Below, piece after piece: positions 34,502-46,562 of a stretch of 64,000 nt of DNA. This DNA is from Salibaculum griseiflavum (GTDB lineage Bacteria; Pseudomonadota; Alphaproteobacteria; Rhodobacterales; Rhodobacteraceae): NCBI RefSeq assembly GCF_003129565.1, contig NZ_QETF01000001.1, positions 186,001-250,000 of the forward strand. The letters are read 5' to 3'. The number at the start of each line of letters is the position of its first letter. Position 1 is the stretch's first letter. The position numbers and the translations under genes are program-made. The notes under the pieces were generated by a model that was not told the DNA's origin, did not search any database, and was given only the letters and a program-made list of their open reading frames with translations.

Positions 34502-34603
34502 CATGTAACGGGCCTGTTTCGCCCAACTCGAACCGGGGACCTTCGGGGCCCTTCACCACATAGGCCTCTGACCAGGCCGCAAAGCAACGGAAAGACAGTA
34601 AAC

Positions 34604-36832: not shown

Positions 36833-37246
36833 ATGCTTCAGCCAAAGCGCACAAAATTCCGCAAGATGCACAAGGGCCGCATTCGTGGCGAGGCGAAGGG
36901 CGGGTCCGACCTGAACTTCGGCACCTATGGCCTCAAGGCGGTCGAGCCCGAGCGCGTCAGCGCCCGTCAGATCGAAGCCGCACGTCGTGCCATGACGCGT
37001 CACATGAAGCGCCAGGGCCGCGTTTGGATCCGTATCTTCCCGGACACCCCCGTGACCGCCAAGCCCATCGAAGTGCGTATGGGTAAGGGTAAAGGCTCTG
37101 TTGACCGCTGGGTCTGCAAAGTGAAGCCCGGCCGCGTGATGTTCGAGATCGACGGCGTCAGCGAAACCGTTGCCCGCGAGGCCCTGCGCCTAGCCGCGAT
37201 GAAGCTGCCGGTCAAGACCCGGACAGTCGTTCGCGAGGATTGGTAG
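36833..37246 (+). CDS. rplP: 50S ribosomal protein L16
   Basis: A 137-residue L16 that contacts A-site t[23 protein letters not shown] and the [12 protein letters not shown] block are intact. The basic [11 protein letters not shown] loop contains the region where Escherichia coli L16 is hydroxylated on arginine. It is the last plus-strand gene before a strong terminator. L29, normally next, comes only after two minus-strand genes. Confidence 0.97.
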
Positions 37247-37313
37247 AACCAATCCCCGGGTGCGGGTAAACGATTGACGCAGTCAATTGCGGCCGCACAG
37301 GCTCAAGAATAAT

Positions 37314-37351
37314 GAAACCCCCGCCGGGAAACTGGCGGGGGTTTCGTTTTT
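37314..37351 (+). terminator. Strong intrinsic terminator after rplP
   Basis: A perfect 12-base-pair stem (37314-37325 with 37334-37345), eight-base loop, followed by GTTTTTGC. On the other strand the stem is followed by ATTATTC, so it may also end the minus-strand pair. This closes the first half of the S10 cluster. Confidence 0.92.
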
Positions 37352-37352
37352 G

Positions 37353-38033
37353 CTACCCCGCATCGGGCCAGATCGCGCGCAACGACCCGTCGAAAGTGGC
37401 CCAGGTCATCGTGGCCTTGTTGCCCGCATAGCCGTGGTAATAGGACCGCCCGTTGGGCAAGGGCAGGCCGGCCCAGATGCGGGCGAGGCTGTGCATGAAC
37501 CGGGCCCGGGGCAGAGTGCCGGATTCGAAATCCTTCAACCCCGCCTCTTCCAACAGGACGATGGCCAGACGGTCCTGCACATCGGGCGTAAAACGGGTCT
37601 GGGCGGGCAACCCCTCCGCCCGGACAAGGCGACGCAGGGTCGCCGGTATGAACTGGTAGCGCCCGATCGCGTGGGGCTGGCCGGGGGTGGCGTCGATCCA
37701 GGCGTCGATCTCGGCCAGGGTCAGCGCGGTGGGCGGCCCTGGCGGGAGGATACGCGCGCCATGCTGCACGGCGTCGTAATTGGCCGGCCCCGCCTCGGCC
37801 CGCGCGATGAGGGTCAGAAGCCGGTCGATCCGGTTGCTGTCATGGGGCGTGGTCAGCGCGGCGGGCTGCCGCAGAACCGCCCGGAACAGCCCGGCCTCGG
37901 CCCCGGCGAACAGGCTGCCCGGCGCGGCGTGCGACACCGGCGAGGGGGCTGATCTGGGGAAGAGCGACTGCAATTCGCCCGCCGCCCCGCTCGCCAGCCA
38001 GATGAACACCATTGCCAAAAGTCGCCCCGCCAT
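37353..38033 (-). CDS. Predicted secreted lysozyme-like protein
   Basis: A 226-residue protein with an N-terminal signal-like segment (LLAMVFIWLASGAAG). The body resembles lysozyme-fold muramidases of the GH104 type: LIARAEAGPANYDAV with the candidate catalytic glutamate, then AIGRYQFIPATLRRL, FTPDVQDRLAIVLLEEAGL and SYYHGYAGNKATMT. The AIGRYQF and QDR patterns are shared with that fold. It would act on peptidoglycan in the periplasm, but catalysis is not shown. It lies inside the ribosomal cluster on the opposite strand, 79 bases after the oxygenase gene, and is probably co-transcribed with it. Confidence 0.65.
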   Translation of the reverse strand: MAGRLLAMVFIWLASGAAGELQSLFPRSAPSPVSHAAPGSLFAGAEAGLFRAVLRQPAALTTPHDSNRIDRLLTLIARAEAGPANYDAVQHGARILPPGPPTALTLAEIDAWIDATPGQPHAIGRYQFIPATLRRLVRAEGLPAQTRFTPDVQDRLAIVLLEEAGLKDFESGTLPRARFMHSLARIWAGLPLPNGRSYYHGYAGNKATMTWATFDGSLRAIWPDAG

Positions 38034-38112
38034 TCTGGCCGCCTCCGAAAATTGGAATTGGCCTGGTTATGGCGCGCGACTCTTTCTCAATGCTTTCCGC
38101 GGCAGGGGCGGT

Positions 38113-38733
38113 TTATTCCCATTTGTAATTAAAGCTGACGGAAATCCGTTCGTCCTCGGCCATGTTCATGGGCACCTCGTGGCGCAGCCAGCTTTCCCAC
38201 AGCAGCACATCCCCCACCTTCGGCGCGACATAGACGAAGGTGCGCAGCTCTTCGCGCGCATTCTGCTTGCGTGGGGGCGCAGCCATGAGCCTACCCGAGC
38301 GCGGATCTTCCAGTTTCAGCGCCGAGGCCCCGTCGGGCATGGAGACATAGGTCGTCCCGGAAATGACGGAATGCGGATGCAGGTGGCTGGAATGGGTGCC
38401 GCCCTCGGGCAGGATATTGATCCAGAGATCCTCGAGCACCAGTTTGCGGTCCGCCAAGTCGAATTCCAGATCCTCTGCAAAGGCCGCGACATGTTGATCG
38501 AGGCTGTCGACGATCTGCTGGAAAATCGGGAACCTCCACGGAAGGTCGGTGAGCGATGCATAGGACGTGTAGCCCGGATAGCCTTCCTTTTCGCACCATT
38601 CCTGCCCGGCCTCGTCATCCTCGGCGATGGAGTAACAGGAGGCTTCCAGTTCATCGGCATCGACGGGCGTGCCGAATTCGGACAGCTGGGCGTGGTAGAG
38701 GCGGGTCACGAAGAGGGATTTGATATTGGCCAT
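38113..38733 (-). CDS. TIGR02466-type putative 2-oxoglutarate/Fe(II) oxygenase
   Basis: A 206-residue protein. LEDLWINILPEGG then the His cluster HSSHLHPHSVISGTTYV (His114, 117, 119, 121), ALKLEDPRSG, LLWESWLRHEVPMN (His185) and DERISVSFNYKWE (Arg196) match the TIGR02466 family, placed in the double-stranded beta-helix oxygenase superfamily. His185 and Arg196 fit the distal iron ligand and the 2-oxoglutarate-binding arginine; the proximal ligands lie in the His cluster. Substrate unknown. ATG 38733 was chosen over upstream in-frame starts because the family begins MANIKSLFVT. It diverges from rpmC and lies 866 bases downstream of rplP. Confidence 0.75.
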   Translation of the reverse strand: MANIKSLFVTRLYHAQLSEFGTPVDADELEASCYSIAEDDEAGQEWCEKEGYPGYTSYASLTDLPWRFPIFQQIVDSLDQHVAAFAEDLEFDLADRKLVLEDLWINILPEGGTHSSHLHPHSVISGTTYVSMPDGASALKLEDPRSGRLMAAPPRKQNAREELRTFVYVAPKVGDVLLWESWLRHEVPMNMAEDERISVSFNYKWE

Positions 38734-38798
38734 GGCCCCTGATAGCCCAGCCCTTGGCCGCAGGCGAGGGGGCATTTTCGACCAAGGGAACAAAGGGG

Positions 38799-38827
38799 TT
38801 GCCACATGCAGCAATCCCCCCTATACG
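38799..38827 (+). promoter_or_regulatory. Candidate promoter of the rpmC-rpsQ-rplN cluster
   Basis: TTGCCA (38799-38804), a 17-base spacer, then TATACG (38822-38827), giving a leader of about 75 bases before rpmC. It restarts transcription of the ribosomal genes after the inverted gene pair. Confidence 0.7.
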
Positions 38828-38907
38828 GCCCACTTCTACACGAACTCCACCGAATCTGTGGGTTACCCGTGCGGGGCCCCTCGGTGATGTTGGAAAGGAA
38901 AAAGGCG

Positions 38908-39114
38908 ATGGACGCCAAGGAACTTCGTGACAAGACCCCCGATCAGCTTCGGGACGAGCTTGCCAATCTGAAAAAGGAGGCTTTCAACCTCCGCTTCCAG
39001 CAGGCCACCGGCCAGCTGGAAAACACCGCCCGCATGCGCGCCGTCAAGCGTGACGCCGCCCGGGTGAAGACCATTCTGAACGAAAAAGCGGCGGCTGCCG
39101 CGCAGGAGGCGTAA
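38908..39114 (+). CDS. rpmC: 50S ribosomal protein L29
   Basis: A 68-residue two-helix L29 with [18 protein letters not shown] and [20 protein letters not shown] 38908 follows GGAAAGGAAAAAGG; an in-frame ATG at 38887 is a weaker alternative. L29 normally follows L16 directly, but here it begins a separate transcription unit. rpsQ follows after three bases. Confidence 0.96.
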
Positions 39115-43180: not shown

Positions 43181-43209
43181 GCGCCTGCCTCGATGAACGC
43201 TGAACAAGT

Positions 43210-43238
43210 GCCCCGGTCAGATATGGCCGGGGCGTTTT
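43210..43238 (+). terminator. Intrinsic terminator after rpmD, inside the spc cluster
   Basis: A 9-base-pair stem (43210-43218 with 43225-43233, one G-T pair), six-base loop, then GTTTTGCTTT. It separates rpmD from rplO, which has its own promoter-like sequence 44 bases further on. Confidence 0.82.
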
Positions 43239-43281
43239 GCTTTAGACCGTGTGCCGAAAACAGGGCGACGTCCCTTGGGCC

Positions 43282-43310
43282 TTGATAACGGAAGTCCAAG
43301 CCCGTATACG
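43282..43310 (+). promoter_or_regulatory. Candidate promoter of rplO-secY-adk
   Basis: TTGATA (43282-43287), a 17-base spacer, then TATACG (43305-43310). The -10 box is the same as that before rpmC. The leader to rplO would be about 90 bases. Confidence 0.72.
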
Positions 43311-43405
43311 CCCCCGGTGGCCTTCTTTGGCCCGATTCACATTCATTAAACGCCGTGTCCCCTGCGTATCGCTTCGGCAGGGTCGTCCGGCAAAGGAGAA
43401 GCGAT

Positions 43406-46113: not shown

Positions 46114-46173
46114 GCCCGGCAGCGGAATGCTCCGGGCTTCAGTTGTGAAAAAAGGTTCCGGCACTACGGAACC
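46114..46173 (+). promoter_or_regulatory. Two hairpins in the rpsM leader
   Basis: The first pairs 46114-46119 with 46132-46137, with an inner AGC/GCT stem. The second is a perfect 7-base-pair stem (46154-46160 with 46167-46173) ending 20 bases before the start codon. rpsD, the Escherichia coli alpha-operon repressor gene, is not in this cluster, so any regulator would differ. Confidence 0.5.
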
Positions 46174-46193
46174 GCAACGAAAGGAAAGATAAC

Positions 46194-46562
46194 GTGGCAC
46201 GTATCGCCGGCGTGAACATCCCGACTGCAAAGCGGGTCCCGATCGCCCTCACCTACATCACCGGTATCGGCCATACTTCGGCCAAGGCCATCTGTGAAGC
46301 CGTCAACATCGACGAAACCCGTCGTGTGAACGAGTTGTCCGATTCCGAAGTGCTCGCCATCCGCGAACATATCGACGCCAACTACACCGTCGAAGGCGAC
46401 CTGCGCCGCGAGGTGCAGATGAACATCAAGCGCCTGATGGACCTTGGCTGCTACCGTGGCCTGCGCCATCGCCGCAACCTCCCCGTGCGCGGTCAGCGCA
46501 CCCACACCAACGCCCGCACCCGCAAGGGCCCGGCGAAGCCGATCGCCGGCAAGAAGAAGTAA
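46194..46562 (+). CDS. rpsM: 30S ribosomal protein S13
   Basis: A 122-residue S13 of the 30S head. It uses GTG 46194 as start (reading [20 protein letters not shown]), preceded by AAAGGAAAG. The C-terminal [19 protein letters not shown] block is diagnostic. It is first of rpsM-rpsK-rpoA-rplQ; rpsK follows after 15 bases. Confidence 0.97.

What the first reader, a model, noticed from the sequence alone, without database searches (positions are those of the whole stretch)
37247..38907. Ribosomal supercluster broken between L16 and L29 by two inverted genes
rplP and rpmC are almost always adjacent in bacteria. Here a strong terminator follows rplP, two minus-strand genes (lysozyme-like and oxygenase) occupy 37353-38733, and a TTGCCA-17-TATACG promoter restarts the ribosomal genes at rpmC. 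The S10 and spc parts are therefore separate transcription units, and the inserted pair is antisense within one of the most highly expressed loci.
Basis: partly seen in the sequence, partly recalled or inferred. Interest (0 to 1): 0.58.

Follow-up and report, generated by a model that had tools for sequence, protein, structure and literature searches.

The report
Ribosomal gene cluster with open joints
In the bacterial family to which this genome belongs, the main ribosomal-protein gene cluster, usually kept intact, comes apart at three fixed joints where other genes settle, and each joint carries its own control RNA, two of which appear to be undescribed.

Summary
rplP and rpmC lie 1661 bp apart. 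The gap contains a terminator hairpin, two minus-strand genes and a TTGCCA-17-TATACG promoter. It is not a local oddity. In 99 colinear genomes of the family (nearly all from different genera) this gap exceeds 400 bp in 68. A TIGR02466 oxygenase lies inside it in 60 of the 68 (38 plus, 22 minus strand); the remaining cargo is mostly unshared. Across all 22 junctions from S10 to adk, in 80 genomes plus the window, gaps over 400 bp occur at only three: L23|L2 (29 of 73), L16|L29 (53 of 81) and L30|L15 (38 of 66). The other 19 junctions have none. The rearranged genomes I could resolve break at these same joints. Each joint precedes a leader RNA. L2 has the known L2-Alphaproteobacteria leader. 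rpmC has an unlisted three-part hairpin with compensatory changes. rplO has an unlisted hairpin whose loop pairs with the segment between the Shine-Dalgarno sequence and the start codon. I read these as four separately transcribed, probably separately regulated modules, with joints that tolerate insertions and inversions. Transcription and leader function are inferred; leader ligands are unknown.

The parts
36833..37246 (+). rplP (L16), last gene of module 2
   Evidence: PF00252 and TIGR01164
37312..37347 (.). terminator-like hairpin between rplP and the convergent lysozyme-like gene
   Evidence: minus strand; plus strand; a hairpin follows rplP in 55 of 68 wide-gap genomes
37353..38033 (-). 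lysozyme/endolysin-like ORF, occasional resident of the joint
   Evidence: phrog_90 endolysin 1e-17; no Pfam match; 10 of 99 family gaps
38113..38733 (-). TIGR02466 / PF13759 2OG-Fe(II) oxygenase, usual resident of the joint
   Evidence: solved relatives 3bvc and 2rg4, both named uncharacterized; inside the gap in 60 of 99
38799..38827 (+). promoter of the rpmC module, TTGCCA-17-TATACG
38846..38907 (+). rpmC leader RNA (model R1), candidate r-leader not in Rfam
   Evidence: Rfam negative
38908..39114 (+). rpmC (L29), first gene of module 3
   Evidence: PF00831 and TIGR00012
34452..34603 (+). joint L23|L2 (unexpanded here)
34535..34601 (+). known L2-Alphaproteobacteria leader RF03142 at joint L23|L2
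   Evidence: 50.7 bits, gathering score 37.8
43181..43405 (+). joint L30|L15 (unexpanded here)
43282..43310 (+). promoter-like TTGATA-17-TATACG upstream of rplO
   Evidence: pattern in 38 of 39 genomes with an expanded or inverted joint
43352..43405 (+). rplO leader RNA with pseudoknot to the SD-start segment, candidate r-leader not in Rfam
   Evidence: Rfam negative

Best explanation
In this family the S10-spc cluster consists of four rigid modules: [S10-L3-L4-L23], [L2-S19-L22-S3-L16], [L29...L30] and [L15-SecY-Adk]. They are separated by three joints. At each joint the downstream module opens with a conserved leader RNA, and at L29 and L15 also with a conserved promoter pattern (a promoter at L23|L2 was not tested). 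After L16 the upstream module usually ends in a terminator-like hairpin. Shown: the gene order, the conserved promoter and hairpin sequences, the leader structures with compensatory changes, and that large gaps and the resolved breakpoints fall only at the joints. Inferred: each module is its own transcription unit, and its leader lets an encoded ribosomal protein tune translation (for rplO, the loop-start pseudoknot would hide the start site). Co-transcription across a joint is then no longer needed, so foreign genes, inversions and breaks there are nearly neutral. The oxygenase settled at L16|L29 early, was inherited vertically and flipped in place many times. The lysozyme-like gene is one of many later arrivals.
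For: Gaps over 400 bp: L23|L2 29 of 73, L16|L29 53 of 81, L30|L15 38 of 66; the 19 other junctions 0 (n = 51-81 each). The nine genomes with separated or inverted halves break at these joints, and one further genome (G038, L240) has both flanking modules inverted at L23|L2 and L30|L15. L16|L29 by gap size: under 150 bp, 17 genomes, none with the promoter pattern, 3 with leader; 150-400 bp, 14 of 14 with promoter pattern and leader but no oxygenase; 400 bp or more, 64 of 68 promoter, 67 of 68 leader, 60 of 68 oxygenase. Promoter and leader therefore also occur without inserted genes. rpmC leader: 8 of 12 pairs with changes on both sides, 76 cells, 0 of 500 shuffles. rplO leader: loop-start pairing of at least 5 Watson-Crick pairs in 63 of 63, mean 6.30 against 5.41 (maximum 5.73 in 200) when tails are swapped between genomes. 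rplO promoter pattern: 0 of 17, 7 of 10 and 38 of 39 by rising gap class, 2.9 expected in all. Oxygenase against r-protein distances: Mantel r 0.56, permutation maximum 0.335; orientation unrelated to its phylogeny, p = 0.47.
Against: No transcript, start-site or binding data. The order of events (leader and promoter before insertion) rests on a weakly resolved tree (14 of 101 branches starred); short-gap genomes inside the large clade may be reversals, and leader presence needs 9 changes on it. The rows of A1 were chosen with a filter that demanded P1 pairing and a loop word, which inflates P1 support and fixes two of the invariant columns, though it does not demand P2 or P3 pairing. Four wide-gap genomes (G019, G069, G089, G114) lack the rpmC promoter pattern and G100 lacks a recognisable leader. 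Moderate gaps over 150 bp occur at three other junctions (S17-L14 8 of 81, L18-S5 14 of 78, L15-SecY 1 of 63). The rpmC leader resembles no rRNA site (nothing below E = 2.7); the rplO leader was not tested for this.
Confidence: 0.8

Rival explanations
1. An ordinary chance insertion of two genes (perhaps phage-derived) into one genome, with a promoter regained afterwards.
For: The lysozyme-like ORF resembles phage endolysins and the oxygenase family occurs in phages.
Against: The gap is expanded in 68 of 99 genomes and the oxygenase is inside it in 60; promoter pattern and leader occur in 14 of 14 genomes with a 150-400 bp gap and no oxygenase.
Confidence: 0.05
2. The joint is a hotspot made by mobile elements or site-specific recombination rather than by relaxed operon constraint.
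For: Cargo is very diverse: 288 gap ORFs fall into 164 clusters, 136 of them with one member; orientation of the oxygenase needs at least 13 changes on the ribosomal tree.
Against: None of the 25 families shown of 62 found among 81 cargo ORFs is a transposase or integrase (37 families not shown). The longest exact inverted repeat between the gap ends is 14 bp; none of 65 gaps reaches 15. Two other joints with different leaders behave alike.
Confidence: 0.12
3. The oxygenase is kept next to rplP because it modifies a ribosomal protein, as YcfD/RoxA hydroxylates L16 in E. coli (recalled, no call).
For: Of 78 family genomes with a strong oxygenase hit, 75 have it beside rplP and/or rpmC (61 inside, 14 within 8 kb of one of them), 2 elsewhere, 1 unresolved on its own contig.
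Against: Outside the family, in 7 genomes with a strong hit (over 200 bits) it is in none within 60 kb of rpmC on the same contig (five of these pairs lie on different contigs). Local inversions alone would keep it at the joint. Eight of the 68 wide gaps lack it.
Confidence: 0.06

Closest known systems
[quoted passage not shown]
   Same: There too most rearrangements (75 of 115) disrupt operon-operon concatenation and leave the operons intact, and genes are inserted at boundaries (passages; section 14 read).
   Different: Those data are from Gammaproteobacteria and Bacilli with the classical operon borders. Here the borders lie at L23|L2, L16|L29 and L30|L15 and coincide with leader RNAs.
L2-Alphaproteobacteria r-leader RF03142 (Eckert and Weinberg, PMC7247131)
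   Same: Same kind of element, present at joint L23|L2 in the window and found in 4 of 4 other genomes scanned, in 3 above its cut-off.
   Different: The rpmC and rplO leaders have other structures. Neither gene is in that paper's Table 1 (section 5 read) and neither leader matched Rfam 15.
S8 regulation of the E. coli spc operon
   Same: A ribosomal-protein operon with an RNA element and autogenous control (described in a passage of PMC2704228).
   Different: In E. coli the site lies between L24 and L5; here the element stands before rpmC and shows no detectable rRNA similarity.

Membership tests
Ribosomal leader (r-leader), rpmC element | conserved secondary structure with covariation | tested here: met
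   8 of 12 pairs with double changes on A1 (4 of the 6 pairs outside the filtered stem), 9 of 12 on matches in named loci (alignment fitted to the model and not fully independent)
Ribosomal leader (r-leader), rpmC element | consistently upstream of ribosomal-protein genes | tested here: met
   84 of 99 genomes directly before rpmC (78 in the model, 6 of the 21 others); 11 of 11 rearranged or contig-split loci that hold rpmC; 30 of 37 named loci of the group; one strong copy in the window's genome
Ribosomal leader (r-leader), rpmC element | not an already catalogued r-leader | tested here: met
   no Rfam 15 match at this place; not in Table 1 of PMC7247131; that paper's supplement listing older leaders was not seen
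Ribosomal leader (r-leader), rpmC element | binds a protein encoded in the operon | not testable with these tools
   only an indirect test: no rRNA mimicry found
Ribosomal leader (r-leader), rplO element | conserved structure with covariation | tested here: met
   pseudoknot and P2 exceed swapped controls; relatedness of the sequences not removed
Ribosomal leader (r-leader), rplO element | consistently upstream of ribosomal-protein genes | tested here: met
   63 of 66 genomes with rplO and an ATG start; not seen before rplO in 22 Rhizobiales-type named loci, where a simple pattern matched once, L059, apparently by chance
Ribosomal leader (r-leader), both elements | lies inside the transcript | tested here: inconclusive
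   placed after predicted promoters only
TIGR02466 2OG-Fe(II) oxygenase | score above the curated cut-off | tested here: met
   291.1 bits against 62.5
Phage endolysin / lysozyme | curated family match and catalytic residue | tested here: inconclusive
   PHROGs matches only, best phrog_90; no Pfam, NCBIfam or solved-structure match; catalytic residue not examined
Mobile genomic island | recombinase gene and flanking repeats | tested here: inconclusive
   25 of 62 families seen; inverted repeats only; direct repeats not tested

The most novel reading that the evidence does not exclude
Two undescribed r-leader classes (rpmC; rplO with a start-site pseudoknot) together with the known L2 leader cut the S10-spc cluster of this family into four self-regulating modules. 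Acquisition of a leader and a promoter at a gene border is what frees an otherwise rigid ribosomal cluster to open, so leader RNAs predict where ancient operons break.
Probability: 0.65. Interest if true: 0.72.

Novelty: new variant of a known kind. Interest (0 to 1): 0.62.

Why it matters
The S10-spc cluster is among the most conserved gene orders in bacteria, and what holds it together is debated (general knowledge, no call). Here the same cluster is rigid at 19 junctions and loose at three, within one family and with many apparently independent events, so the question becomes testable: does local control (promoter plus leader) release a junction? The two candidate leaders would also add ribosomal-protein control elements in a group that includes common marine bacteria.

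Tried and rejected
Rejected: a single recent insertion (family-wide); Leu_leader, His_leader and other sub-threshold Rfam hits, taken as chance; rRNA mimicry of the rpmC leader; long inverted repeats as the cause of oxygenase flips; a class-wide link between oxygenase and rpmC. The strict sigma-70 scan finds no promoter: it demands a final T in the second hexamer, which TATACG lacks. That promoters without this T depend on CarD in Rhodobacter is recalled only; the search for it listed nothing that I could use. A 16S search of the window's own genome found none and the 23S search found pieces, so rRNA of other family genomes was used. PMC2481283 (passages) concerns conservation of the locus in Leptospira and was no parallel.

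Rows dropped: of 99 genomes, 21 were not in A1: 14 failed my filter (outer-stem complementarity plus a loop word), 4 have gaps under 60 bp (G013, G049, G054, G083) and 3 were left out by name because the filter had hit the wrong place (G021, G031, G092). All 21 were then searched with R1 and 6 matched. G079 (gap about 19.7 kb) is not among the 99 because its fetched stretch was cut short of rplP. For the rplO leader 3 of 66 rows (L220, L253, L270; gaps of 33-70 bp, no motif seen) were left out by hand. Supercluster stretches were fetched for 80 of 98 colinear genomes, the first 80 by handle number; some were cut by contig ends, hence n below 81 at outer junctions. Some named loci (L026 and L047 at least) carry leaders that look identical to model members, so one search is not a fully independent test. 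One search also returned two weak matches in L052 (E about 0.4), taken as chance but included in A2. Twelve genomes with rplP and rpmC on different contigs could not be decided and are not counted as separated.

Full report
Observation. rplP (36833-37246) and rpmC (38908-39114) are separated by 1661 bp that hold a lysozyme-like ORF and a TIGR02466 oxygenase, both on the minus strand. A strong hairpin at 37312-37347 follows rplP. The scan lists it as terminator-like on the minus strand only; my own scan, which trims the stem, lists it on the plus strand. It may thus serve the two convergent genes.

Family-wide gap. L29 was found in 122, L16 in 121, both in 121. Of these 121, 100 are colinear within 20 kb, 17 have the genes on different contigs, 3 on opposite strands and 1 far apart. 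In the 99 colinear genomes read in full, the window included, the gap is under 100 bp in 11, 100-400 in 20, 400-900 in 3 and at least 900 in 65; the oxygenase is inside in 60, 38 on the plus and 22 on the minus strand. Neighbouring junctions in the same genomes never exceed 400 bp: S3-L16 0 of 99, L29-S17 0 of 99, S17-L14 0 of 98. In 29 named loci from other alphaproteobacterial groups (L050, L052-L062, L064-L068, L070-L081) the rplP-rpmC distance is 23-82 bp. The closest named rplP sequences are 93% identical and belong to Ruegeria, Cognatishimia, Tropicibacter, Pelagimonas and an unnamed Rhodobacteraceae.

Residents and cargo. The 288 gap ORFs that my own caller finds in unnamed and named loci form 164 clusters, 136 of them with one member; the oxygenase has 76 members, the lysozyme-like protein 9, the next 6, 5 and 4 (one search printed 169 because it counted five query proteins as clusters; the caller misses some oxygenases and lysozyme-like genes that tblastn finds). 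Among 81 other cargo ORFs of at least 120 aa from the family genomes, the 25 Pfam families shown of 62 include methyltransferases, SnoaL, ferritin, an ion channel, TctA, a DMSP lyase and Usp. Oxygenase distances follow ribosomal-protein distances (Mantel r 0.56; permutation maximum 0.335) and orientation is unrelated to its phylogeny (p = 0.47). Orientation needs at least 13 changes on the ribosomal tree and 14 on the oxygenase tree. That fits vertical inheritance with repeated local inversion; the trees are weakly supported. Of 78 genomes with a strong oxygenase hit, 61 have it inside the gap, 14 within 8 kb of rplP or rpmC, 2 elsewhere and 1 on a separate contig. In 7 genomes outside the family with a hit over 200 bits it is in none within 60 kb of rpmC on one contig.

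Control signals at the joint. Terminator-like hairpins follow rplP in 55 of 68 wide-gap genomes (0.9 expected) and in 14 of 31 others (0.1 expected). The promoter pattern stands 70-125 nt before rpmC in 78 of 99 (1.5 expected); it is absent in all 17 genomes with gaps under 150 bp, present in 14 of 14 with 150-400 bp and in 64 of 68 with larger gaps. In the shortest gaps there is no room for it, so that absence is partly trivial.

A leader RNA before rpmC. The last 60-80 nt before rpmC are strikingly conserved: an outer stem, a middle stem and an inner stem around a conserved internal loop, followed by the Shine-Dalgarno region. On 78 sequences 95.9% of cells pair, 8 of 12 pairs show changes on both sides, and none of 500 shuffles reaches these values; RNAalifold finds much the same structure unaided, 10 pairs. 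My row filter demanded outer-stem complementarity and a loop word, so only the middle and inner stems (4 of 6 pairs with double changes) are free of it, and two invariant columns are so by construction. Model R1 finds the element just before rpmC in 30 of the 37 named loci of the group that hold both genes (E at most 2e-8); the seven misses (L034, L036, L038, L039, L046, L049, L051) have rplP-rpmC distances of 19-101 bp. It also precedes rpmC in 11 of 11 further loci with separated, inverted or contig-split halves. In the 99 genomes it is present in 84 and absent in 15; 14 of the 15 have gaps of at most 124 bp, the other is G100. The window's genome has one strong copy and two matches under 20 bits. 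In a class-wide sample of 289 genomes 8 match at E 0.01: five of the family at 45 bits or more, and three others at 22-27 bits (how many further family genomes the sample held was not shown). Rfam 15 has no family here.

The whole cluster. To see whether the joint is unique I fetched up to 20 kb around it from 80 of 98 colinear genomes and measured all 22 junctions from S10 to Adk, the window included. Gaps over 400 bp occur at L23|L2 (29 of 73), L16|L29 (53 of 81) and L30|L15 (38 of 66), and at no other junction (0 in each of 19, n = 51-81). Gaps of 150-201 bp occur at S17-L14 (8 of 81), and gaps over 150 but not over 400 bp at L18-S5 (14 of 78) and L15-SecY (1 of 63), without insertion. Expansion at the three joints is correlated between genomes (Fisher p 1.9e-6, 5e-5 and 7e-4; shared ancestry not removed). 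In one genome (G038) S10-L23 and L15 are both on the strand opposite to the middle block. In genomes with separated or inverted halves the breaks fall at the same joints: in G040 the L2-L16 block lies about 206 kb away and S10-L23 now abuts the oxygenase and rpmC; G008, G101 and G055 show L2-L16 without L23 upstream in the stretch read; in G029 the block L29-L30 is inverted beside L16; in G124 the block L29-L30 has moved and L15-SecY stays. From contig positions and lengths nine genomes (G008, G029, G040, G045, G055, G061, G101, G115, G124) have the halves separated or inverted; twelve more are undecided.

A third leader. Upstream of rplO stand a promoter pattern (38 of 39 genomes with an expanded or inverted joint, 7 of 10 with 150-400 bp, 0 of 17 below; 2.9 expected in all) and a leader seen in 63 of 66 genomes examined. 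Its outer stem is nearly invariant; its inner stem changes sequence freely but stays paired (mean 6.52 pairs against 5.63, maximum 6.17, in chimeras of halves). Its loop pairs with the segment between the Shine-Dalgarno sequence and the start codon in all 63 (at least 5 Watson-Crick pairs; 6.30 on average against 5.41, maximum 5.73 of 200, when tails are swapped), with at least six different pairing words. In 22 Rhizobiales-type named loci, where L30 and L15 are 4-25 bp apart, I do not see it; a simple pattern matched one of them, L059, apparently by chance, and the same pattern missed some clear family members such as L043 and L047. Rfam 15 does not list it. The first joint carries the known L2-Alphaproteobacteria leader.

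Reading. The simplest account is that each module acquired its own start of transcription and its own translational control, after which the border no longer mattered for dosage, and insertion, inversion and breakage became tolerable there and only there. Leaders and promoters occur at joints without inserts, and leaders occur without promoters in short gaps (G011, G082, G094 at rpmC; several at rplO), which suggests the order leader, promoter, insertion. The tree is too weak to prove it, and some short gaps inside the large clade may be reversals. Function of the leaders, their ligands, and real transcript ends remain to be measured.

Known kinds. That borders of this cluster open while operons stay whole is known from Gammaproteobacteria and Bacilli (PMC8046335: passages; section 14 read). 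R-leaders are a known kind (PMC7247131: abstract and outline; section 5 read). What I did not find in print, in the searches and 100 of an open-access library (some listings capped), are these borders, these two leaders, or the link between them. Subscription papers on S10-spc-alpha organisation were not available to me. The checking round changed some counts (clusters 164 instead of 169, the terminator scan, the Rhizobiales distances) but none that moved the odds.

Noticed in passing
L082, L093, L105, L116, L123, L127, L170 (upstream of rpmC): Seven short-gap genomes without the rpmC leader share, by eye, another element with TTGGAAAAGCG-like and CTTCTGATGAAAGGA-like ends around a variable hairpin; possibly an alternative leader at the same place.
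   Followed up: no
window 46135-46226: Weak match (27.2 bits, below the cut-off of 38) to the Alpha operon ribosome binding site RF00140 upstream of rpsM; a similar weak match in L285.
   Followed up: no
joint L23|L2, upstream of rplB in L210-L289: The L2 leader region often holds repeated GGGGACCTTCGGGGCCC-type hairpins in varying number before a nearly constant ACGGAAGACAG segment (by eye).
   Followed up: no
G000:C23:214494-215066: A second, diverged TIGR02466 copy (104 bits) exists in the window's genome, with similar-scoring copies in several family genomes.
   Followed up: no
L140 (G079): The largest colinear rplP-rpmC gap in the sample, about 19.7 kb, contents not analysed; it carries the rpmC leader.
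   Followed up: no
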